Shown here: positions 33,033 to 63,138 of the stretch, piece after piece
Numbering within the stretch: position 1 is the stretch's first letter
How the letters are laid out: each line of letters starts with the position of its first letter
NCBI GenBank assembly: GCA_016188575.1
Contig: JACPHN010000032.1
Location: forward strand, 1 to 64,000
DNA length: 64,000 nt
Direction: 5' to 3'
From: Candidatus Schekmanbacteria bacterium
Lineage (GTDB): Bacteria > CSSED10-310 > JACPHN01
Position numbers and translations under genes: made by a program
The notes under the pieces: model-generated
What the model was told of the DNA's origin: nothing
The model's input: the letters and a program-made list of their open reading frames with translations, nothing else
The model's database searches: none

Positions 33033-33061
33033 TTGACGGCCTGCGGGCCAATCGTTATAGT
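33033..33061 (+). promoter_or_regulatory. Sigma-70-type promoter of the ketosynthase-ACP operon
   Basis: The -35 TTGACG (33033-33038) and -10 TATAGT (33056-33061) are separated by 17 bp, an excellent match. Transcription would start near 33068, about 30 nt before the GTG start of the first ketosynthase. Confidence 0.65.
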
Positions 33062-33099
33062 CGCAGACGTGGCTAGAGCCACATCGATGGGGGAGGCCC

Positions 33100-34377
33100 G
33101 TGAATCGCAACAGTGGAAATCGCCGCGCGCCCGTGCTCGTCACCGGTATCGGTGTGGTCGCTCCCGGGGCGGTAGGCCGGGAGGCTTTTTGGGCCCGTAT
33201 CCTCGATGCGCGCCCGCAAACGCGGCCGGTAACGCTGTTCGACACGTCGCGGTTTCGCTCCGTGCTCGGAGGCGAGGTGCCACGAGAGGACTTGGCGCTG
33301 GCGCTCGACGACTTCGCCGCGCGCACGCATGCGGCGGTGCCCGCCGGCAGAACGGCGCGGCTCCTTCTGGTCGCGGCCGATGAGGCCCTCGCCAGTGCGG
33401 GCCTCGGCGATGCGGAGCTGCGGCGCGCGACGGCGTTCGTGTTCGGGAGCACCCTGCCTGAGGATGCCTTTGAACAGCACGCGCTGCGGCGCTTCGCATG
33501 CCAGCAGCAAGGGGTTCCGTTCGCGGCTCCTGAACCTGCCGAGATGTTCGCGGCAGCATACGCGGGCGGCGCGCGCGCCGTCGGCCGAGCACTCGGTCTG
33601 AGCGACGTGCGCCTCGGTGTCCCCGGCGCCTGTGCAGCGGGCAACTACGCCTTGCTGCTTGGCGCCCTGTTGATTCGTGACGGGGCTGCCGAGCGGGTTC
33701 TGTGCTGCGGAGCAGACCACCTGTCGCCGGTGAATTTCGCGGGCTTCGGCCAGCTTGGGCTGCTTGCCGATGACGTTTGCCGCCCGTTCGACGCATGCCG
33801 GCGCGGTCTCATCCCCGCCGAGGGAGCGGGTGCCCTGCTTCTGGAATCTCGCTCGTCGGCAGCCGCGCGGGGCGCCACCGTGCTTGCCGAGCTGCGCGGT
33901 GCGGGAATGGCAACGGATGCCTATCACGTGAGCGCTCCGGATCCAAGCGGACGTGGCCTCACATTGGCAATCGAGCGCGCGCTCGGCGATGCCGAAGCCA
34001 GCGGCGACGCGATCGACTACGTGAGCGCCCACGGCACGGGGACGCCCGCAAATGATCGGGTGGAGTCCCTGGCGCTGCGCCGGGTGTTCGGATCGCGGCT
34101 CGATCACTTGCCGGTTTCTTCGATCAAATCGATCTTCGGTCACTCCATGGGGGCGGCCTCCGCCATCGAGGCGGTCGCGACCGTGCAAGCGATCCGTGCC
34201 GGCGTGCTTCCACCCACCATCAACCACGTCACTCCGGACCCCGACTGCGTGCCCGACGTCGTTCCCAATGCGCCGCGCCCGGCTCGCGTGAAGCTCGCCC
34301 TGAGCAATGGCTACGCCTTCGGAGGCGGCGCCGTGGCGATCATCTTGGCCGCAGCAACGGGCGAGGTCGCGCGGTGA
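33100..34377 (+). CDS. Beta-ketoacyl-ACP synthase (FabF/KS-alpha type)
   Basis: The 425-residue condensing enzyme has the full thiolase-fold catalytic set: Cys178 in GACAAGNYAL, His311 in SAHGTGTPANDRVE, Lys343 and His348 in SIKSIFGHSMGAASAIEA, and the glycine-rich end SNGYAFGGGAV. It should elongate an ACP-bound acyl chain with malonyl-ACP. The GTG start at 33100 has a strong GGGGGAGG upstream. Its stop overlaps the next gene as GTGA, and the order KS, KS-like, ACP is that of a minimal type II polyketide synthase. No ketoreductase, dehydratase or acyltransferase gene is nearby. Confidence 0.9.
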   Translation: MNRNSGNRRAPVLVTGIGVVAPGAVGREAFWARILDARPQTRPVTLFDTSRFRSVLGGEVPREDLALALDDFAARTHAAVPAGRTARLLLVAADEALASAGLGDAELRRATAFVFGSTLPEDAFEQHALRRFACQQQGVPFAAPEPAEMFAAAYAGGARAVGRALGLSDVRLGVPGACAAGNYALLLGALLIRDGAAERVLCCGADHLSPVNFAGFGQLGLLADDVCRPFDACRRGLIPAEGAGALLLESRSSAAARGATVLAELRGAGMATDAYHVSAPDPSGRGLTLAIERALGDAEASGDAIDYVSAHGTGTPANDRVESLALRRVFGSRLDHLPVSSIKSIFGHSMGAASAIEAVATVQAIRAGVLPPTINHVTPDPDCVPDVVPNAPRPARVKLALSNGYAFGGGAVAIILAAATGEVAR

Positions 34378-35402
34378 GCCCGCCGCGCGTAATGCCGTCG
34401 ATAGGTGCCTCGATGCCGGTGACCGTGACGGGGTTCGCCTTGTTTTCGCCCGCCGGTCTGGACTGGCGGCACGCCCTGGCCCGCGTTACCGAACGAGACG
34501 GCGGCAGCGTGCGGTCGCTCCCACCTCTGCCGGAGACCGTAGACTTCGACGCGGCCGCCCTGCTTGGCAAGAAGGGGCTACGCGTGCTGGACCGGGCTTC
34601 CTGCTTGCTCGCCGCCACCATTCGCAGCGCCGCACACGAAGCCGGTCTGGGTGACGCGCTGGCGGGCGCGGAGACGGCTCTGGTTGCCGGCACGTGTTAC
34701 GCGTTTGCCGAGAGCTATGCCACGTTCGTGGACGACGCGGCGGAGCACGGGCCGACGCTGGCGAATCCCACGTTTTTCGCGCGGGCGATCGCCTCGGCGG
34801 CACCCAGTTTGGCGGCGCTTCGGCTCGGGATCACTGGAGCGGTGGTACCGGTGTGCGGAGGTCTGTGCGCTGGCGGCACCGCCTTGGCGGTCGCGCATCA
34901 GCTCGTCGCGGCGGGCAGGTTTCCGCGAGCCGTGGCGGCGTCAGTAGCGACGGTCGAGCCGCGAGTGGCGGAGCTGACGCGCCGGTCCTGCCCCGGGCGA
35001 CGCCCGATCGAGCTGGCCGCTGCCATGATTGTGGAGCCCCTGGACACGAGCTCGCCCGACGCCGAGCCTTCCCGCATCAGACTGGAGGAATCCAGAATCA
35101 TGGAGCTTTCGGCACCGCAGGTGCTGCCGGAACCCTCTTCCGTGCCCGCCACCGCAGTCTCAACGTGGATCGTGTTTGGAGACGAGCCGATCGGCCGGCC
35201 CGCTCTTGCACCGGCAGCGAGATTGCTCAGGCCCGAGTGGGACCTCGGCACCGGCGTCGGCGTCGCGGGGCTTGCGGAAGCGGTGCTCGCCGCCGGGCTG
35301 CTGAGATCCGCTGCCGGCGGACAACCCGAGGCAGGCGCAATCGCGGCGTCTACTGTCGATCCGTGGGACGACAAGCAATGTTTGTTCGTGTTCAGGCGAT
35401 AA
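34374..35402 (+). CDS. Ketosynthase-like protein lacking catalytic His (chain-length-factor-like)
   Basis: The 342-residue protein has only the first half of a ketosynthase fold in recognisable form: FALFSPAGLDWRHAL at the N-terminus and a nucleophile-elbow-like CGGLCAGGTALAVAHQ with Cys161 and Cys165. The C-terminal part is shortened and has no HGTGT, Lys or GH motif, so it cannot carry out a normal condensation alone. By order and size it resembles a KS-beta or chain-length factor that pairs with the preceding KS. It differs from classical factors, where the Cys is usually replaced by Gln. The GTG start overlaps the previous stop by 4 bp. Confidence 0.75.
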   Translation: MSPPRVMPSIGASMPVTVTGFALFSPAGLDWRHALARVTERDGGSVRSLPPLPETVDFDAAALLGKKGLRVLDRASCLLAATIRSAAHEAGLGDALAGAETALVAGTCYAFAESYATFVDDAAEHGPTLANPTFFARAIASAAPSLAALRLGITGAVVPVCGGLCAGGTALAVAHQLVAAGRFPRAVAASVATVEPRVAELTRRSCPGRRPIELAAAMIVEPLDTSSPDAEPSRIRLEESRIMELSAPQVLPEPSSVPATAVSTWIVFGDEPIGRPALAPAARLLRPEWDLGTGVGVAGLAEAVLAAGLLRSAAGGQPEAGAIAASTVDPWDDKQCLFVFRR

Positions 35403-35486
35403 TTAATGCGAAGCTGAGGCTTCTTGGCAAAGCGCATTCCGAGGGTCGAAGAAGCGGCCGATGACACGAGAGAGCTAGAGGTGAAA

Positions 35487-35789
35487 ATGCGTGCGTTGCA
35501 GGACACCGATGAGGTCCGAAGCATCATTCGCAAGCTGGTTGCGGACCTTGCCGAGCGGGAGTTGGACGAAGTCGGCGACGACGACGATTTTTTCGATTCC
35601 CTTGGCCTTGACTCGATGCATGCTCTGGAGCTTGGCATCGAGCTGGAAAAAGCGCTCGGGATTCAAGTCCGCGGCGAGGATATCGCAGAGCTGAGAACAG
35701 TGAGCAAAGCAGTAGCTTTTGTGGTCGCAAACGACCCTGAAAGTCAGGGGGTCCGGCGCGCCAGCGCCAAGCAGGAGGCACGTCCATGA
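35487..35789 (+). CDS. Acyl carrier protein
   Basis: The 100-residue protein has the 4'-phosphopantetheine site LGLDSMHALEL with Ser43, preceded by the acidic run DDDDFFDSL and followed by the helix-III pattern of ACPs. The last 15 residues are a basic tail. I chose ATG 35487 because AGAGG lies about 7 nt upstream; the in-frame GTG at 35481 is an alternative. The stop overlaps the next start as ATGA, so the ACP and the giant protein are translationally coupled, which suggests the acyl-ACP is used by or for that protein. Confidence 0.9.
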   Translation: MRALQDTDEVRSIIRKLVADLAERELDEVGDDDDFFDSLGLDSMHALELGIELEKALGIQVRGEDIAELRTVSKAVAFVVANDPESQGVRRASAKQEARP

Positions 35790-38700
35790 CAGTTGATTCG
35801 ACGCAATTTCGCCCGCAGGGACCGATCGCGATGCCGCCGAGGTTGCCGGAGCCACAGCAGATTGTGCCTTCGGCCGCCCAGATCGCGCAGCCTTTCTTGA
35901 TGAACGCGCTCGGCGCGTCGGGCGCTCCGCGCGACCTTCTCTCCTGCGTGCAGGGCTGCTTTGGAAACCCGGCCGGTTTCGCGCCCGCTGACCTCGGTAA
36001 GGCGGTTGCGCAGCTTGTCGGTGGGCTCGCCCAGGATTCCCCGTCTGGTGCAGCGAGCGCGGTGCAGGCCGGACTTTCCGGCGTGGGCACCGCGCTGCTG
36101 GACTGGGGCGGAGCCACGGGGGCGTTTTCGCAAATGGGCGCGGTCCGCGTGCTGGTGGATGAGGCCTCATCGATGCTTGCGGGTGCGACCCGCGAGTTGC
36201 CCGGGGGACAGCCTGCCGGTGCCGGCTTCGCACCGTTCGCCGGCGCCGCGGAGCAATTCGCGCAAGACCTTACGGGCGCCGGAAGCTACCTCGCCGGTCC
36301 CGCGTTCCACCCGCCGTTCGACGCGATTGCCTCCGTCGGCACCGCGCTGGCCGGCGCGGCACAGTCCTGCCTGCTGGGCGACGCCTCGGCCGGGGCCGCA
36401 GGCGGGGTGCACCGCGGCGGGTCTCCCGTTGCCCAGGCCGCGGGCACGGTGCAGCGGCGGCGTGATTTCGCCCCTCCGGCCCCCTTTCTCGCGGCCCCCG
36501 CGGGCGGCTATCCATCGCTCGCGCAGCTCGGGACAGACCTCGGGAAGTCCATGCGCGCCCTGTGCTCCCAGTGCGGCGTCCCGCCTAGTAGCGGTTTCGA
36601 CGCGCAGGTTGCCGCACTGATGCGACAGGTCGGCGCCGCGCCGACACTGCCGACGCAGCTTCCCGGCCCCGGTGGGCCCGGCCAGCAGATCACGCCCGAG
36701 GCCGCGCTGTTCACGCTACTCGGGATGGTAAACCAGATCAACTCGCAGATGCAGACCCCCACGGGGGCGCCCCCGCTTTCACAGCGCCCGATCGCACCTG
36801 CGACCGCCGGGATCCAGAATCTGTGCCAGCAGTACGGCCAGTTTTTTGCCGGACCGCAAAGCCCCTTCGGACCTGGAGCGATGGCCCCCGGCATGCAAAT
36901 GTTTGGGCCGCAGCCGGGCCGACAACCGGGCGCCTTCGTCGACACCCAGTCGATCATGCGCCAGCTCCAGGCGATGCTCGCCGCTCTGGCGTCGGGTGCG
37001 AGCCCGGCGGAAGCGGCACGGCAGGGCATGCTCGCCGCCCAGGGTCCCGGCAGTCCCGCGCCGATGGGCGCCCCCGCCGCCGGAGCAGCGCGCCCCGAAG
37101 CGGCTGCCGGCCCCGCGGCGAGCGCCGGCCCGGCTGCCTCCGGAGGCGCGGACGCCGCCAGCGGTCCGAGCAAACCAGCGGTAAAGGATCCCGCCGACGG
37201 CATGTCGGCCGAGGAAAAGAAGACCCGCCAGGACAAGATCCAGGAGGCCATCGACGACGAGGACGAAGATGCGCTCGAAAGCATCTCCAAGGACCCCAAG
37301 ATGATGGCCGCGGCATCTCCCGAGCAAAAGGCCGCGATCATCAAGGAGTTCGTCGACGGCACGACCAAGAATTCCGAGGACCGAGGCATTCTCGACGTGC
37401 TCGAGTCCTGCGCGAGCCCCGAGGAGTTCGAAAAGGTTGTCGAGCTCTCGGGAGGCAAGGAGGCTTTCGACGAGATCGACCTCGACGAGGTCAAGGAGAA
37501 GATGAGCATGCTCGCCGGCGGTTATGGTCGCACCGACCTGGCTACCGACAAGGAAGCCGCGTCCCTCATGGAAGGCGAGCTGCTCAAACCGGAGTCAGAT
37601 CTCTTCGTCGCTAGCGACCCCACCTCCCTCGACCCCTACTATTCCCAATCAGCCGACCCTAACGCCAGCGCCGGGGATCGGTTCGAAAACCTCAACGAGG
37701 GACGAATCAAGGAAAAGGCGTACTACAACATCGAGCCGGCGGCGCAAAAAGAGCTGATGATGGAGAACGCCAAGCGCCGCAAGGACGGCAAGGAACCGCT
37801 CGACCTCACGAGCTTGACCGCAGAGATGGAAAGGATCCGCGCCGACAAGAGCCTGTCGAAGGAAGAGCGCGAAGAGAAAATCGAACAGCTCCGCAACGAC
37901 ACAGGGTTAACCGAGGACACGATGCGCCAACTCGGCACGCAGCGGCTCGGCACCATTTACAACGAATCGGCGTCCGAGGGCGGAGCAATCGCGGAGCAGA
38001 TGCTCGGACAGCTCCAGCAGCAATACCAGCAGGCCGTAGCCACCTACGGTGAGGATTCCGAAGAAGCCAAGGAGCTCAAGGAGCAGATCGACGACCTGAA
38101 GGCGAAGTCGGAGCCGTATCTCAAGGAGCTCGGCGACGTCGGCCAGCAGCTCATGGAGCTGTATCCGGTACCCAAGGACTTCTGGGAACAGTTCGGCAGC
38201 ATATTCACAAAAATCCTTGACCTGCTGTCGCCGCTGCTGAACCTTATTCCCGGCATCGGTTCGGCGCTCTATGCCGGCTACATGGGTGTGAAACTGATCA
38301 TCGCCGCGGTTCAGGGCGACATCGCGGGTGTTATCGGGTCCGCGGCCGGCATGCTCGGCCCCATCGGCGGCGCCATCGGGGGGACGGTAGGAACGGTGTT
38401 GACGACAACGGGGAAAGTCATGCAGGCGGGCCTGGGAGTCGAGCAGGGCGTGGAAGCTGCCGCGCGCGGCGACGTGCTCGGGGCGGTGACTTCGTTCGGC
38501 GGCGCCGCGATGGCGGGTGCCGGGGCGGCCGGTGTCGATGGAGATTCGCTCAAGAGCATCCAGCAGGGTGTCAATCTCGCGACCAGCGGCGCCAAATTCG
38601 GGGTCGGGGTGGCCAACGGCGACTGGGAGCAGGCGCTTTCGGGCCTCGGGGGCATGGCCGCCGGTGTGCGATCGTTTGGCGGCCCCGCACTTGGAGACCC

Positions 38701-39874
38701 AGACAGCCCCGGCGGGAGACTTCTCAACGTCATCGACCAGGGGGCTCAGTTCGGCCTCAACGTCGCCAACGGCAACGTTGCCGGCGCGTTCGGGCAGCTT
38801 TCCAACGGCTTCGGGGACCCCACGGTGCAGGGATGGCTCGATAGCGTGGCGGGCAATTCGGTCGTCGGCGACGTTCTCGGCGTCACCCGCCAGGGCATCG
38901 ACTTCTTCAACAATGTGCAGAACGGGAACTATGGAGCGGCTTTCGGCAACGCGGCCAATGCGCTCGGGAACGTGCCGGGGCTGGAAGGATTCGTGGGCGA
39001 CCCGACCGTGCAGCAGGCACTGACCTTTGGCAGGCAGGGCGTGGACTTCTTCACGAACCTCGGCAATGGGAACTATGGGCAGGCGCTCGGGACGCTCGCG
39101 CAAGGTGTCGCGCCCTACTTCGGCGGCCAGGATTTCATCAACGGCGTGGGCGCGGTGCGCGGCCTGGCTGGCGCTGTCCAGTCGCTGGCCGACGGAGACC
39201 TGCTCGGCCTGCAGCGCTCGCTCGCGGGTGGGCTTGGCGACACCATGCCCTTGCTTCAGGGCCTCGGAACGGGACAGCTCGGACAGAACCTCCAGGGCCT
39301 GTTTGACGGTGCCGGGCAGATCTTCGGCAACCCGAACGTGCAGACGGCATGGAGCATGCTTTCCCAGGGTGCTCCCTTCGTCCAGGCGCTGGTGCGCGGA
39401 GACGTTCAGAATGCCTTCCAGTCCCTCGGGCAGATGCCGGCTCTGGGCAACATTCACCCGGCACTGAACCAGGCGCTCGGCTATGCGTCGCAGGCGGGCT
39501 CCTTCATGACGGCGATGGCGAGCGGCAACTATCTGCAGGGGTTGAACATGGTTGCGGGACCCAATGGACCGCTGGCGGGTGTTCCCGGCTTTGCCGAGGC
39601 CATGCCCTTCGTGCAGCAAGCCGGAGCGTTCTTTGGGTCCATGGCCAACGGCACATTCGCGAACGGCCCCGGCGGTCTGCTGCCGGTGCTCGGAAATATG
39701 GCGGGCAACAGCGGCGCGGTGATGGCCGGCTTCGGGCAGCTCGAAGGCGTGGCGCGGCAGCTCTTGAATGCTTCGGGAGGAGACGTGAACAAGGCGATGC
39801 GCATGCTGTGGCAGATGAGCGGTGGTGGCGCTCCCGTGCTACCTGCCACGCTCTTCGCTCAGCAGATGCGCTGA
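35786..39874 (+). CDS. Giant hydrophobic-repeat protein of the ketosynthase-ACP operon, unknown function
   Basis: The 1362-residue protein matches no family I can name. Residues 1 to about 465 are Ala/Pro/Gly/Gln-rich with scattered Cys. Residues about 465-590 are acidic and helical. Residues about 630-800 look like a coiled coil (EMERIRADKSLSKEEREEKI). A hydrophobic Gly/Ala-rich segment at about 810-915 (SPLLNLIPGIGSALYAGYMG, GPIGGAIGGTVGTVL) could insert into membrane. From about 830 to 1310 there are roughly ten degenerate repeats with the consensus QGxxFxxxxxNGNxxxAFxxL, for example RQGIDFFNNVQNGNYGAAFG and RQGVDFFTNLGNGNYGQALG. No Sec signal is visible. The coupling to an ACP suggests an acylated or lipid-associated structural or toxin-like protein. 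Confidence 0.8.
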   Translation: MTVDSTQFRPQGPIAMPPRLPEPQQIVPSAAQIAQPFLMNALGASGAPRDLLSCVQGCFGNPAGFAPADLGKAVAQLVGGLAQDSPSGAASAVQAGLSGVGTALLDWGGATGAFSQMGAVRVLVDEASSMLAGATRELPGGQPAGAGFAPFAGAAEQFAQDLTGAGSYLAGPAFHPPFDAIASVGTALAGAAQSCLLGDASAGAAGGVHRGGSPVAQAAGTVQRRRDFAPPAPFLAAPAGGYPSLAQLGTDLGKSMRALCSQCGVPPSSGFDAQVAALMRQVGAAPTLPTQLPGPGGPGQQITPEAALFTLLGMVNQINSQMQTPTGAPPLSQRPIAPATAGIQNLCQQYGQFFAGPQSPFGPGAMAPGMQMFGPQPGRQPGAFVDTQSIMRQLQAMLAALASGASPAEAARQGMLAAQGPGSPAPMGAPAAGAARPEAAAGPAASAGPAASGGADAASGPSKPAVKDPADGMSAEEKKTRQDKIQEAIDDEDEDALESISKDPKMMAAASPEQKAAIIKEFVDGTTKNSEDRGILDVLESCASPEEFEKVVELSGGKEAFDEIDLDEVKEKMSMLAGGYGRTDLATDKEAASLMEGELLKPESDLFVASDPTSLDPYYSQSADPNASAGDRFENLNEGRIKEKAYYNIEPAAQKELMMENAKRRKDGKEPLDLTSLTAEMERIRADKSLSKEEREEKIEQLRNDTGLTEDTMRQLGTQRLGTIYNESASEGGAIAEQMLGQLQQQYQQAVATYGEDSEEAKELKEQIDDLKAKSEPYLKELGDVGQQLMELYPVPKDFWEQFGSIFTKILDLLSPLLNLIPGIGSALYAGYMGVKLIIAAVQGDIAGVIGSAAGMLGPIGGAIGGTVGTVLTTTGKVMQAGLGVEQGVEAAARGDVLGAVTSFGGAAMAGAGAAGVDGDSLKSIQQGVNLATSGAKFGVGVANGDWEQALSGLGGMAAGVRSFGGPALGDPDSPGGRLLNVIDQGAQFGLNVANGNVAGAFGQLSNGFGDPTVQGWLDSVAGNSVVGDVLGVTRQGIDFFNNVQNGNYGAAFGNAANALGNVPGLEGFVGDPTVQQALTFGRQGVDFFTNLGNGNYGQALGTLAQGVAPYFGGQDFINGVGAVRGLAGAVQSLADGDLLGLQRSLAGGLGDTMPLLQGLGTGQLGQNLQGLFDGAGQIFGNPNVQTAWSMLSQGAPFVQALVRGDVQNAFQSLGQMPALGNIHPALNQALGYASQAGSFMTAMASGNYLQGLNMVAGPNGPLAGVPGFAEAMPFVQQAGAFFGSMANGTFANGPGGLLPVLGNMAGNSGAVMAGFGQLEGVARQLLNASGGDVNKAMRMLWQMSGGGAPVLPATLFAQQMR

Positions 39875-39949
39875 CAACGCACATTGATCGGGCGGCTCGA
39901 CTGGCGGGGCCGCCCGTTGCCAGCCACCACGCCAGAATTGACGGGAGAC

Positions 39950-40264
39950 ATGAGCCAGCAGCCCCCGAAGATCGAGGTGACGGCCGCAGGAATCGGCCGT
40001 CTCCTCAGTTTCTTGCTTGGTGCGTGCGTGATCGGCGGCCTCGTCGCGGCGGTGCTCGTGGGGCGCGGCGCGCTCGCGGTTGCCGGCGTGGCGATGCTGC
40101 TCGCGGAGCTAGGCGTCCTGCTGCCTGGCGACGCCGGCGCCGGATATCGGGAAACCTTGGGCTGGCCCTTGGATTGGCACCAGCAGTGGAATTACCGACT
40201 CGGGCTCCTGCTCGGTGCGGCAATCGGCCTCGCGCTGCTACAATACGGGGTCAGCGTCGACTAG
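39950..40264 (+). CDS. Small two-TM membrane protein
   Basis: The 104-residue protein has two to three hydrophobic segments: LLSFLLGACVIGGLVAAVLV, ALAVAGVAMLLAELGVLL and, near the C-terminus, LGLLLGAAIGLALLQYGVS. The last ~30 residues between them are aromatic and charged (WPLDWHQQWNYR). I chose the ATG at 39950 with GGGAG upstream. It lies 75 bp after the giant protein gene on the same strand and may belong to the same operon, perhaps as a membrane partner. No family is recognised. Confidence 0.65.
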   Translation: MSQQPPKIEVTAAGIGRLLSFLLGACVIGGLVAAVLVGRGALAVAGVAMLLAELGVLLPGDAGAGYRETLGWPLDWHQQWNYRLGLLLGAAIGLALLQYGVSVD

Positions 40265-40331
40265 AGAGCTGCGGCGGCGCGGATCGACGCGCCACGTAGC
40301 TCCTGAGGACCGCGATTCGGAGCTCGTAGAC

Positions 40332-40724
40332 GTGTGGCTGCCCGGGGACGATGACGAAGCAAAGACAGTGACAGCGCTGGTGGTGGAGGACCTCTACGAC
40401 CATCGCGAAATCCTGCGCGAAACGCTGGAGGAGCTCGGTGTGCGCGTGCTCGAGGCACGCGACGGCCGCGAGGCCATACGCGTGTTCAAGCAGCACCGGG
40501 CGGCGGTGGACCTGCTCGTTACCGACATCGTGATGCCAAAAATGGACGGCTTCGAGCTCGCGGAACGGCTCCGGGCGCTGGCACCGCCGCTGCGCGTGCT
40601 GTTCGTGTCTGGCCTGTCCAATCCGGAACCAAACAGCGGCATGGCCTACCTCGAAAAGCCCTTTCGCCGCGAGGATTTCATTGCGGCCATCCAGAAGCTG
40701 CTACCGGATCTGCGCGAGCCGTAG
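40332..40724 (+). CDS. Stand-alone response-regulator receiver domain
   Basis: The 130-residue protein is a CheY-like receiver without an output domain. The acidic pair E19-D20 (VVEDLYDHREIL), phospho-acceptor D65 (LLVTDIVMPKMDGFEL), a switch Ser (FVSGLS) and K109 (YLEKPFRREDF) are all present, so phosphorylation should be possible. The start is uncertain: GTG 40332 has GGAG 9 nt upstream and GTG 40368 is an alternative. It is the last gene of the ketosynthase-ACP run and has no cognate kinase beside it. Confidence 0.85.
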   Translation: MWLPGDDDEAKTVTALVVEDLYDHREILRETLEELGVRVLEARDGREAIRVFKQHRAAVDLLVTDIVMPKMDGFELAERLRALAPPLRVLFVSGLSNPEPNSGMAYLEKPFRREDFIAAIQKLLPDLREP

Positions 40725-59529: not shown

Positions 59530-62500
59530 ATGTCGCTAGACACGCCGGGGTCACGAATGGCAGGTGAGCTGTGCGGAGCATGTGGGATCTCCTTGCCGGA
59601 GGGCGCGCGTTTCTGTACTGGCTGTGGCGCCCCCGCCAGCGCTCGGTGCACCGGTTGCGGGATCGATCTGGTGCGTGGCGCGCGGTTTTGCCACGCGTGC
59701 GGCGCGCGGGTGGCTTCGGGGCCTGATCCTGGCGGGTCACCACCGGGGCCGGGGGCAGGAGGCCTGAACCTTCCGGCGGCGACGACTCGCGACGATGGAG
59801 GTGAAATCCGCCAGGCGACGATTCTCTTTGCGGATGTCGTGGGGTACACCTCGTTTTCCGCGGCGCTCGATCCGGATGACGTCCATCAGCTCATGCGCCG
59901 CGTATTCGCAGTCACGGACAGCGCGATCCAGACCCATGGGGGGGTTGTCGACAAGCACCTTGGCGACGGCGTAATGGCGGTTTTCGGGTTGCCTCGCGCG
60001 AGTGAGGACGATCCGCTGCGGGCAATCCGGGCGGCGCTGGAGTTCCAGCGCAACATGCTGGCGCTCAATCGCACCTTCGCCCTGCAGCGACTGCCCGAGG
60101 CGCGCCTGCGCGTCGGCATCAATACGGGACGGGTTCTCGCGGGCGGCGTCGGCGCCAGCGGGCAGGAAAGATCGGTCGTCGGCGATGCCGTCAACGTCGC
60201 GGCACGGCTGCAGACGGCCTGCGTGCCCGGAGGCGTGCTGGTTTCTCATGAGACCTATCGGCACGTCCGCGGGCTCTTCGACGTCGTCCCCCAGGCGCCG
60301 ATCTCGCTAAAGGGCCTACCGCATCCGCTCACCACGTACCTGGTCAAGGCGGCCAAGAGCGAGCGTCTCTTCATCGGCACCCAGCAGGTCCTCGGACACG
60401 AGACCGCGCTGGTTGGCCGCGATCGCGAGATGGCGCAGCTCTGGGCAGCATTCGATCGCTCGAGTCATGGCAACGAGTCGGTCATCGTGACCATCGTGGG
60501 CCCGGCCGGGCTCGGCAAGAGTCGACTGCTCCACGAGCTCCACAAGCAGCTCGAAACGCTCGAGCATCCCATTTACTTGCTGCGCGCCCGGGCGTCGACG
60601 GAAAGCGCGATCGTGCCCTACGACCTGCTCGGCACGGCGCTCAAGGGCCGCGCCGGGATCCGCGATGAGGACGAGGCCGCAACTGCTCGCCAAAAGCTAC
60701 TGGCTTGGGTCGCAGGGTTGCTGGACGAGCCGCCCCGGCTGTGGGGTCGGCGTCGCGACGACCCGCCGCCACCTCCGGCGCCGCCTTCGCCCGCTACCGC
60801 CGGCCTCGCATCCGCGACAGCCACCGAAGCAGCGCACCTGATCGGGGAGCTCCTTGGCCTGACGTTTCCCGATTCTCCCTACCTCGCGCCGCTCCGCGCC
60901 GATCCCGTATCGCGGCGCGACCGCAGCTTGTGGGCACTCGAGCGGCTCGTCAGGCGACTCACCATTGCCACGACCGTAATCGAGCTGGAAGATGTCCAGT
61001 GGGCGGATCGCTCCTCCCTCGACGTGTTCCTGCACCTGCACGGCAAGCTTGCCGACCGGCCGCTATTTGTCCTGGCCACGGCTCGCCCCGAGGCCGCCAG
61101 AATCCATCCCGAATGGAGCGCCATTGCCGAGCGGCGCCTGACGATCCCGCTGGCGCCGCTACAGCCCGACGCCGCGCGCGAGCTCGCCGAGCACCTCCTA
61201 CAGTACGTGGAGGACATGCCGCCGGACCTCGCCGAGGAAATCGCCGTGCGCTCGGCGGGGACACCGTACTTCGCGGAGGAGATGGTCAAGAGTCTGGCTG
61301 ACCTCGGCGCTCTCGACCTGCGCGCCGGCCGGTGGCGCTTTCTGCCGGAAAAGATGCACGCCATCGAGATCCCGTCGACGGTCGAGGGGCTGCTGCAGGC
61401 GCGCCTGGATCGCTTGAGCGAGACCGAGCTACGCGCGGTCAGAATGGCGGCGGTAGTGGGAAAGGTGTTCTGGGACCGCGCCGTGTCTCGACTCTGGGAG
61501 CAGCCAGACGCGGATGCCGGCCTTGCCCCTCTGCTCGCGGGCCTCGTGCGGCGTGAGATGGTCGTGCGACGGCCCGTCTCGACTTTTCGCGGTTGCGAGG
61601 AGTACGCCTTCATCCACGACCTGATGCGGGACGTTGCCTATCGCGGGCTGGTCAAGCGAGTGCGGCGTGAGCTTCACGGGCTCGTCGCGAGCTGGCTCGA
61701 GGCGCAGACCGGCGATCGTCTGCGCGAGCGCGCCTCGCTGCTCGGCTATCACTGGCATGAGGCGGGCGAGGTTGACCGGGCGCGCCTCCTGTACTTGAGC
61801 GGCGCCCGCGACGCGGCGGCGCGCTACGCCCATTCCGAAGCCGAGCGCCTGCTCAGAGCCTATCTGTCCCTGGTCACCGACGTGACTCCAGAGGCTGTCG
61901 ACGCCCGCGTCAGCCTGGCCGTCGACGTGCTCCACGTGCTTGGCCGAAACGACCTGGCGAAGGCGGAGCTCCTCGAGGCGCTGGAGGCTGCGACCACCCA
62001 GGCGTATCGCGCCGGTGCGGCCCGCGCTCTGCTCGGCCTCGCCACCGTGCAGAACATTCTCGGCGAGACCGCTGAAGCGCTGGCGTCGTGTCAGGCGGGG
62101 CTCGCCACCTACCGCGAGCTCGGGGAGCAAAAGGCCGAGGGCGATGCGCTCTGTGAGATGGCTCACATTCTCATGCGCCTGGGGCGGCTGCCGGAGTCGC
62201 TGCAGGTTTACGAGCAAGCGCTGGCCCTGCACCGAGCGCTTGGCGAACGGCGCAGCGAGGGGCAGACGCTGAGCGGCATGGCCGCGTTGCTGTCCTTCTC
62301 CGGCAAGACGCGAAGTGCCGCGGACTGTTTTCGGGAGGCCATCGCCATTTTTCGGGAGCTTGGGGATCGCATGCTGGAAGGGCGCGCGCTCGGAAACCTG
62401 GCGCTTTGCCAGCTCGAGATTCAGGAGGACGAACAAGCTGAGCAAAACATGCGGGGCGCGCTGGAAATCTATCGCGTGACGGGAGACCGGCGGTACGAAG

Positions 62501-63138
62501 GCTGGATGCTGAGCAACCTGGGAACGCTCGCGCAAAAACAGCAAGGTCTCGAGGCAGCGGAAGCGCTGTATCAGCAGGCTCTCGGAGTCCACCGCGAGGT
62601 CGGAAACCGCATCTACGAAGCCGACACGCTTGTCCAGCTTGCCAACTTGAAGGTCGAGAAAGGTGAGCTCGGCGAGGCCCGGGCGCTGCTAGGGCAGGCG
62701 GAGCAGCTCAATCGCGAGGCCGGGAACCGGCTGTTCCGGGCGATATCTCAGCTCGAGCAGGCGCGGCTGGAGCGTTGGATCGAGGGCGACGCGGAGCGCG
62801 GCGCGGCACTGCTGGAGATGGCCGAGAAGACGTTCCGGACCTTGGGAGCGGAAGCGATGCTCTTTCGCTGCGCGGTCGAGCGCGGTCACGTGGCGCTTGC
62901 GGCCGGGGGTGATGGCCGATCGTGGCTGGCCGGGGCATCTGAGATGCTGGCGGAACCGGGGATGGAGGAGACCGGCGAGTTGCGGCGGGAGCTCGAGAAA
63001 CTGGAGCTGGCCGTGGCCGCGCAGGGGCGCGGCGAGGTGCTCGTCGCCGGGGAATGTCCGGAGCATGTTCCGCGCGGGATTCGCGCGCTCGCCGAGCACC
63101 GCGGCGGCGGCGACTCCGGGCGTGGCGAGCGACCCTGA
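59530..63138 (+). CDS. Class III adenylate/guanylate cyclase fused to ATPase and TPR array
   Basis: The 1202-residue protein begins with two zinc-ribbon pairs (C15/C18 with C29/C32, C40/C43 with C54/C57), then a class III cyclase catalytic domain: ATILFADVVGYTSF with metal-binding Asp102, KHLGDGVMAVFG, and VVGDAVNVAARLQ. An AAA-type ATPase (VGPAGLGKSRLL near residue 325, VIELEDVQWAD) and a long TPR array follow (EGRALGNLALCQLEIQEDE and similar). It should make cyclic nucleotide in response to a ligand sensed by the ATPase-TPR part. Start ATG 59530 has no clear ribosome-binding site; ATG 59557 is possible. It forms a head-to-head pair with the gene ending at 59364. Confidence 0.93.
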   Translation: MSLDTPGSRMAGELCGACGISLPEGARFCTGCGAPASARCTGCGIDLVRGARFCHACGARVASGPDPGGSPPGPGAGGLNLPAATTRDDGGEIRQATILFADVVGYTSFSAALDPDDVHQLMRRVFAVTDSAIQTHGGVVDKHLGDGVMAVFGLPRASEDDPLRAIRAALEFQRNMLALNRTFALQRLPEARLRVGINTGRVLAGGVGASGQERSVVGDAVNVAARLQTACVPGGVLVSHETYRHVRGLFDVVPQAPISLKGLPHPLTTYLVKAAKSERLFIGTQQVLGHETALVGRDREMAQLWAAFDRSSHGNESVIVTIVGPAGLGKSRLLHELHKQLETLEHPIYLLRARASTESAIVPYDLLGTALKGRAGIRDEDEAATARQKLLAWVAGLLDEPPRLWGRRRDDPPPPPAPPSPATAGLASATATEAAHLIGELLGLTFPDSPYLAPLRADPVSRRDRSLWALERLVRRLTIATTVIELEDVQWADRSSLDVFLHLHGKLADRPLFVLATARPEAARIHPEWSAIAERRLTIPLAPLQPDAARELAEHLLQYVEDMPPDLAEEIAVRSAGTPYFAEEMVKSLADLGALDLRAGRWRFLPEKMHAIEIPSTVEGLLQARLDRLSETELRAVRMAAVVGKVFWDRAVSRLWEQPDADAGLAPLLAGLVRREMVVRRPVSTFRGCEEYAFIHDLMRDVAYRGLVKRVRRELHGLVASWLEAQTGDRLRERASLLGYHWHEAGEVDRARLLYLSGARDAAARYAHSEAERLLRAYLSLVTDVTPEAVDARVSLAVDVLHVLGRNDLAKAELLEALEAATTQAYRAGAARALLGLATVQNILGETAEALASCQAGLATYRELGEQKAEGDALCEMAHILMRLGRLPESLQVYEQALALHRALGERRSEGQTLSGMAALLSFSGKTRSAADCFREAIAIFRELGDRMLEGRALGNLALCQLEIQEDEQAEQNMRGALEIYRVTGDRRYEGWMLSNLGTLAQKQQGLEAAEALYQQALGVHREVGNRIYEADTLVQLANLKVEKGELGEARALLGQAEQLNREAGNRLFRAISQLEQARLERWIEGDAERGAALLEMAEKTFRTLGAEAMLFRCAVERGHVALAAGGDGRSWLAGASEMLAEPGMEETGELRRELEKLELAVAAQGRGEVLVAGECPEHVPRGIRALAEHRGGGDSGRGERP

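What the first reader, a model, noticed from the sequence alone, without database searches (positions are those of the whole stretch)
33033..40724. Ketosynthase / ketosynthase-like / ACP operon coupled to a giant repeat protein
Seen: the KS, KS-like and giant genes are joined by 4-bp GTGA and ATGA overlaps around an ACP, behind a clean promoter, with no ketoreductase, dehydratase, acyltransferase or export gene. Established: KS-KSbeta-ACP in this order is the minimal type II polyketide synthase. Inference: the acyl chain built on the ACP is used on, or with, the 1362-residue protein, giving an acylated membrane-active or surface protein. I know of no described system with this composition.
Basis: partly seen in the sequence, partly recalled or inferred. 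Interest (0 to 1): 0.78.

Follow-up and report, generated by a model that had tools for sequence, protein, structure and literature searches.

The report
Acyl-chain genes joined to secretion-linked giant
A four-gene operon in a poorly known bacterium joins a stripped-down polyketide/fatty-acid-type chain-building set (ketosynthase, dead ketosynthase partner, acyl carrier protein) to a huge unnamed protein whose relatives so far occur only in genomes with a type III secretion system, hinting at a secreted protein that is fitted with a lipid before export.

Summary
The operon is real: KS 33100-34377, KS-like 34374-35402, ACP 35487-35789 and giant 35786-39874, with GTGA and ATGA overlaps behind a 10-of-12 promoter match. 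The KS is catalytically intact (Cys178-His311-His348); the KS-like protein has lost all three residues. Both resemble the KS/chain-length-factor pairs of highly reducing type II PKSs more than FabF. Their closest relatives (39-42%) sit in ordinary clusters, mostly with KR and DH; here none is nearby.

The giant belongs to an unnamed family (no Pfam match): a helical domain, a conserved hydrophobic LIPGIG module and weak C-terminal repeats. No relative seen elsewhere has KS/ACP beside it. The new observation: every genome with a confident match carries the type III secretion gate SctV (5 of 5, against 13 of 386 genomes), the window's own genome included. A precedent exists: Salmonella's dedicated ACP, IacP, lipidates the T3SS translocator SipB and binds a ketosynthase.

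Best reading: a lineage-specific operon that builds an acyl chain on its own ACP and attaches it to a T3SS-exported, membrane-inserting giant. Acylation, secretion and the KS/ACP-giant link are inferred (confidence 0.4).

The parts
33033..33061 (+). sigma-70-like promoter, TTGACG-17-TATAGT
   Evidence: 10 of 12 consensus bases; 0.7 sites expected by chance in the 8.2-kb region scanned
33100..34377 (+). ketosynthase (425 aa), catalytic Cys178, His311, His348
   Evidence: PF00109 8e-30 and PF02801 6e-35; best PDB match 9s5h_B 1.8e-81, then ishigamide KS 6kxd; residue positions
34374..35402 (+). KS-like, chain-length-factor-like protein (342 aa) without catalytic residues
   Evidence: PF00109 1.1e-5; 9s5h_C 1e-12; best pairwise matches are CLFs; nucleophile column is Leu with Cys at +1, both His columns Thr; KS fold predicted
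35487..35789 (+). acyl carrier protein (100 aa from ATG; alternative TTG start 35424), Ser43 in GLDSM
   Evidence: PF00550 2.3e-14; Ser position
35786..39874 (+). giant protein, 1362 aa, pI 4.5, no annotated family
   Evidence: no Pfam/NCBIfam/PHROG match above cut-off; homologues in G002, G134, G270, G386, G387
35786..37195 (+). giant aa 1-470: Ala/Gly/Gln/Pro-rich N-terminal region without a detected homologue; holds 6 of the 7 Cys
37202..37516 (+). giant aa 473-577: helical domain (DPKMMAAASPEQKAAIIKEF...), also in G002 (2 copies), G386 (2 copies) and G371 (3 copies)
   Evidence: pLDDT mostly 72-91 in single-sequence AlphaFold2
38180..38425 (+). giant aa 799-880: hydrophobic module FWEQF...LLNLIPGIGSALYAGYMGVKLIIAAVQGD...GGAIGGTVG, the best conserved part of the family
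   Evidence: alignment A2, hydropathy, pairwise matches
38483..39775 (+). giant C-terminal weak helical repeats of about 48 aa (QGxxFFxNLxNGNYGxALG)
39889..39916 (+). GC-rich hairpin just after the giant stop codon (no T tract)
   Evidence: -23 kcal/mol for the 56-base stretch

Best explanation
The operon makes a lipid-modified, type III-secreted, membrane-inserting protein. The KS and its catalytically dead partner form a KS-CLF-type heterodimer that extends or loads an acyl chain on the operon's own ACP, borrowing malonyl transfer and any reduction from the housekeeping fatty-acid synthase. The acyl group is passed to the giant, which is made immediately downstream by translational coupling to the ACP. 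The giant is then exported by the cell's non-flagellar T3SS and uses its hydrophobic LIPGIG module, helped by the acyl group, to enter a target membrane. Shown here: the operon, intact KS, dead KS-like protein, ACP, the giant family with its conserved hydrophobic module, a T3SS in the same genome, and co-occurrence of the giant family with SctV. Inferred: heterodimer formation, the acyl donor, transfer to the giant, secretion and membrane insertion.
For: Operon with GTGA/ATGA overlaps and a promoter. KS triad intact, KS-like triad lost; CLF-type matches. SctV above its curated cut-off occurs in 13 of 386 genomes, and all 5 with a giant-profile match at E<1e-9 are among them (hypergeometric p 2e-8, 3e-5 if three lineages are counted). 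Two further giant-bearing genomes also encode SctV, in one of them split by a frameshift. The window's genome has SctV (816 bits as SctV against 682 as FlhA) with an LcrH/SycD-like chaperone beside it, SctR/S/T/U with an FHA-SctQ fusion, and a separate flagellar set. In G134 and G270 the giant lies divergent to an LcrH/SycD-like TPR gene (5.6e-13), and near a gene with a weak match to the T3SS translocon protein NolX (9e-4, below cut-off). Precedent: IacP acylates the T3SS translocator SipB and interacts with the ketosynthase FabB (PMC5279801).
Against: No giant homologue elsewhere has KS/ACP beside it. No protein acyltransferase is recognised in the operon. No Cys lies near the hydrophobic module, unlike SipB Cys316; the nearest is Cys542. 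The giant matches no known translocator family, and no T3SS gene was recognised in the window. The closest KS/CLF/ACP sets lie in clusters that look like small-molecule or lipid pathways. Co-occurrence with SctV rests on few lineages (essentially two phyla for the full core), and genome size may confound it. 4-bp overlaps are common between neighbouring bacterial genes.
Confidence: 0.4

Rival explanations
1. The KS/KS-like/ACP set is a minimal type II PKS that makes a small molecule or special lipid, by one or few condensations with FAS enzymes recruited in trans. The giant is only co-transcribed, or concerned with export or resistance.
For: The KS is nearest to highly reducing type II PKS ketosynthases, and the closest relatives lie in such clusters. 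Cispentacin AmcF-AmcG shows that a KS plus a motif-less partner plus ACP can act with a single elongation and a recruited FAS FabI; minimal clusters of ACP, KS, partner and ligase exist (PMC10698177). The giant exists elsewhere without KS/ACP.
Against: No tailoring, ligase, thioesterase or exporter gene was recognised in the locus. The KS scores 212.8 against the AmcF cut-off of 325. It does not explain why ACP and giant are translationally coupled.
Confidence: 0.32
2. The giant is a cytoplasmic or membrane helical scaffold that gathers KS, KS-like and ACP, or their lipid product, at a membrane. It is neither acylated nor secreted.
For: All-helical prediction with ARM/HEAT-like and repeat parts and no obvious Sec-type signal in the sequence; in G002 the gene just downstream overlaps by ATGA and has a weak HEAT-repeat match.
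Against: Family members without KS/ACP would then need another client. The SctV association is unexplained.
Confidence: 0.13
3. The association of the giant family with T3SS is a by-product of large genomes and few lineages; the giant is an unrelated surface or phage-tail-like protein.
For: The giant-positive genomes are all large (4.5-10 Mb) and fall in few families. The full core is confirmed in two phyla only; counting just two lineages gives p of about 0.001. Weak tape-measure-like match (phrog_1272, E 0.03).
Against: Among the genomes of 6 Mb or more listed, giants fall in 4 of 5 SctV-positive and 0 of 6 SctV-negative genomes (p 0.015). LcrH/SycD-like neighbour in G134 and G270. No relative found in IMG/VR contigs or plasmids.
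Confidence: 0.15

Closest known systems
IacP-SipB translocon acylation of the Salmonella SPI-1 T3SS (PMC5279801)
   Same: dedicated ACP gene close to a large hydrophobic protein linked to a T3SS; published interaction of that ACP with a ketosynthase (FabB)
   Different: here the ketosynthase and a CLF-like partner are in the operon itself; the giant is unrelated to SipB by Pfam, is about twice as long, and lacks a Cys next to its hydrophobic module; acylation untested
Highly reducing type II PKS KS-CLF (ishigamide IgaKS-CLF, PDB 6kxd; PDB 9s5h chains B and C; Streptomyces ACP-KS-CLF-FabG clusters)
   Same: KS/CLF/ACP composition and nearest sequence relationship
   Different: no KR, DH or other tailoring gene; 342-aa KS-like protein with about 80 residues missing and all catalytic residues lost; giant protein attached
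Cispentacin AmcB-AmcF-AmcG (PMC10698177)
   Same: KS plus a partner lacking functional motifs plus ACP, with FAS enzymes recruited in trans
   Different: KS below the AmcF model cut-off; no AmcH-like ligase recognised in the locus
HlyC/RTX toxin acylation (as described in PMC5279801)
   Same: acyl-ACP used to lipidate a secreted membrane-active protein before export
   Different: no HlyC-like acyltransferase, RTX repeats or type I exporter recognised here

Membership tests
minimal type II PKS (KS-CLF-ACP) | KS with Cys-His-His catalytic triad | tested here: met
   Cys178, His311, His348
minimal type II PKS (KS-CLF-ACP) | KS-homologous partner without catalytic Cys | tested here: met
   Leu at the nucleophile column (Cys at +1), both His columns Thr
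minimal type II PKS (KS-CLF-ACP) | ACP with phosphopantetheine serine | tested here: met
   PF00550 2.3e-14; Ser43
minimal type II PKS (KS-CLF-ACP) | KS and partner form a heterodimer that condenses malonyl units | not testable with these tools
   biochemistry needed
highly reducing type II PKS | KS falls in the highly reducing clade | tested here: inconclusive
   groups with Streptomyces KSs and 9s5hB at SH-aLRT 87 in a quick 23-row tree
highly reducing type II PKS | KR and DH genes in the cluster | tested here: not met
   none recognised at about 28-42 kb (gene calls read by eye); a KR is present in relatives G086, G244 and G356, and a DH in G086 and G244
cispentacin-type (AmcF) | KS above NCBIfam NF058662 cut-off of 325 bits | tested here: not met
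   212.8 bits
T3SS translocator (known Pfam/NCBIfam families) | match to a translocator family model | tested here: not met
   no match above cut-off for the giant or its homologues
IacP-SipB-like acylated translocon | genome encodes a non-flagellar T3SS | tested here: met
   SctV; SctR/S/T/U and FHA-SctQ
IacP-SipB-like acylated translocon | ACP gene within five genes of the translocator | tested here: inconclusive
   ACP overlaps the giant gene, but the giant's translocator role is inferred
IacP-SipB-like acylated translocon | Cys just upstream of the first hydrophobic segment | tested here: not met
   nearest Cys is 542; hydrophobic module starts near 800
IacP-SipB-like acylated translocon | target protein carries an ACP-dependent acyl group | not testable with these tools
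   mass spectrometry needed

The most novel reading that the evidence does not exclude
A self-contained protein-lipidation operon in which a dedicated KS-CLF pair builds a custom acyl chain on a dedicated ACP for a giant type III-secreted membrane protein: a polyketide synthase whose product is a protein modification rather than a free metabolite.
Probability: 0.25. Interest if true: 0.85.

Novelty: new variant of a known kind. Interest (0 to 1): 0.6.

Why it matters
If the reading holds, ACP-based lipidation of type III-secreted proteins reaches beyond SPI-1-like systems into an almost unsampled phylum, and carries its own chain-building enzymes. That would let one ask directly whether ketosynthases supply the acyl group, a step left open for IacP-SipB, where the authors only suggest FabB. 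Independently of the acylation, the giant family is an unnamed protein family whose distribution follows SctV, and so a candidate for unrecognised T3SS translocators or effectors in large-genome environmental bacteria.

Tried and rejected
Ordinary FabF/KAS: rejected as the best label, because the KS and KS-like proteins match KS/CLF pairs better than FabF. Aryl polyene or complete highly reducing cluster: no KR or DH recognised near the locus. Known fold for the giant: the single-sequence model of aa 473-1163 was poor (mean pLDDT 56); structural matches were generic helical repeats with Z under 9, and no claim is made from them. Close relatives of the giant or KS in 84,980 genomes by exact peptides: none for the giant, only generic KSs at 30-40% for the KS. 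Giant core in plasmids and viral contigs: none. Identity of PDB 9s5h: not found in the paper library and not listed by the structure searches, so it is cited by code only. Tail tape-measure reading: E 0.03 only. G165 giant match (8e-5): judged chance, no SctV above cut-off.
Full report
OBSERVATION. The window is bases 1-64000 of a 162-kb contig in a 9.2-Mb genome from a phylum with only eight genomes held. The four genes stand as described: KS 33100-34377, KS-like 34374-35402, ACP (ATG 35487, or TTG 35424)-35789, giant 35786-39874. The GTGA and ATGA overlaps are present. A 10-of-12 promoter match lies at 33033-33061, where 0.7 are expected by chance in the region scanned. Codon-position GC supports all four as genes. 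After the giant's stop codon there is a GC-rich hairpin; the next genes (a small membrane protein, a response regulator) are not shown to belong.

THE KS-KS-LIKE-ACP SET. The KS keeps Cys178, His311 and His348. In the KS-like protein the nucleophile column holds Leu (a Cys follows at +1), both His columns hold Thr, and about 80 residues are missing, so it is CLF-like and should be inactive. AlphaFold2 with eight KS relatives gives a KS fold (pTM 0.68, mean pLDDT 59; Z about 22 to many KSs), though the alignment favours that outcome. In the PDB, 9s5h chains B and C are the best match for KS and KS-like respectively, ahead of FabF; ishigamide KS (6kxd) is second for the KS. Against a small reference set the KS matches highly reducing type II KSs best and the KS-like protein matches CLFs best. 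A quick tree puts the KS with them (SH-aLRT 87); the KS-like branch is very long. In 386 genomes the closest KSs are 39-42% identical. They sit beside CLF-type and ACP genes, with KR in G086, G356 and G244, DH in G086 and G244, and an MMPL exporter in G086. Streptomyces plasmid relatives are ACP-KS-CLF followed by fabG in two of the three read, and with FabG, DH and malonyltransferase genes nearby in the third. The window's trio is therefore a reduced version of a known type of gene set; malonyl loading and reduction would have to come from the housekeeping FAS (FabF/ACP pair on contig C68). That is inference.

THE GIANT. No curated family is met. Homologues: G002 (1762 aa), G134 (942), G270 (932), G386 (740 and 1301), G387 (752). 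G371 shares only the helical domain, in three copies, upstream of a zinc-protease-like HExxH region. The most conserved part is a hydrophobic module around LIPGIG...GVKLI...QGD...GxIGG (36-39% identity to G386 and G387 around it). The C-terminal repeats are weak. The N-terminal 470 residues had no detected homologue and hold six of the seven Cys. There is no obvious Sec-type signal. None of the homologues has a KS or ACP gene beside it; in G002 only 655 bases upstream can be read.

THE T3SS LINK. SctV (TIGR01399, above curated cut-off) is found in 13 of the 386 sampled genomes. All five genomes with a giant-profile match at E<1e-9 (G000, G002, G134, G270, G371) are among the 13; by the hypergeometric this is 2e-8, or 3e-5 if only three lineages are counted, and about 0.001 if only two are. 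G386 encodes SctV above cut-off, and G387 encodes it split by a frameshift. Genome size could confound; among the genomes of 6 Mb or more listed the association holds weakly (p 0.015). The window's own genome has SctV next to an LcrH/SycD-like TPR gene and a Gln/Gly-rich 762-aa protein, SctR/S/T/U with an FHA-SctQ fusion on another contig, and a distinct flagellar set. In G134 and G270 the giant is divergent to an LcrH/SycD-like gene, and a nearby gene has a sub-threshold NolX match.

MECHANISM. Viala et al. (PMC5279801) showed that the SPI-1 ACP IacP binds the translocator SipB and the ketosynthase FabB, and that SipB is acylated in an IacP-dependent way that needs Cys316; they propose ACP-based lipidation as a general route for cytoplasmically made secreted proteins. 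The window's operon would be a more self-contained version: its own KS, CLF-like partner and ACP, translationally coupled to a hydrophobic protein of a T3SS-associated family. I give this 0.4. It is weakened by the absence of KS/ACP near every other giant, by the absence of a Cys near the hydrophobic module, and by the lack of a known translocator signature. The main rival, a small-molecule minimal type II PKS of the cispentacin kind (PMC10698177), is nearly as likely.

VERDICT. Real operon, composition correctly read; interpretation partly supported. New: the giant's family is linked to type III secretion. The system is a new variant of a known kind unless acylation of the giant by the KS/ACP set is shown.

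Noticed in passing
L081:8428-13471 (G000:C195): SctV flanked by an LcrH/SycD-like TPR gene and a 762-aa Gln/Gly-rich protein (pI 4.4) without family, a possible T3SS substrate; composition resembles the giant but no sequence match.
   Followed up: partly
L104:10012-11658 (G000:C227): FHA domain fused to a FliM/N-type C-ring protein (SctQ-like) beside SctR/S/T/U.
   Followed up: no
L049:10105-12768 (G371:C2): 659-aa protein with three copies of the giant's helical domain and an HExxH zinc-protease-like region, followed by a 223-aa gene of unknown family; looks like a secreted protease with a partner gene.
   Followed up: no
L106:3119-5460 (G000:C150:67119-69460, beyond the window): asparagine-synthase-like gene directly next to a PqqD-like gene, the pair typical of lasso peptide clusters.
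   Followed up: no
L006:5941-7665 (G002:C70): 574-aa protein with a weak HEAT-repeat match, overlapping the G002 giant gene by ATGA.
   Followed up: partly
L050:8548-10299 (G000:C22): second KS-type locus in the same genome: one KS 34% identical to the window KS, a further KS-like sequence (one reading has an in-frame TGA) and a 157-aa dehydratase-like gene that was read by eye only.
   Followed up: partly
G387:C721:417-2506: SctV gene split into two frames, either an assembly error or a broken gene.
   Followed up: no
window 59530-63138: 1202-aa protein joining zinc ribbons, adenylate cyclase, AAA and TPR domains.
   Followed up: no
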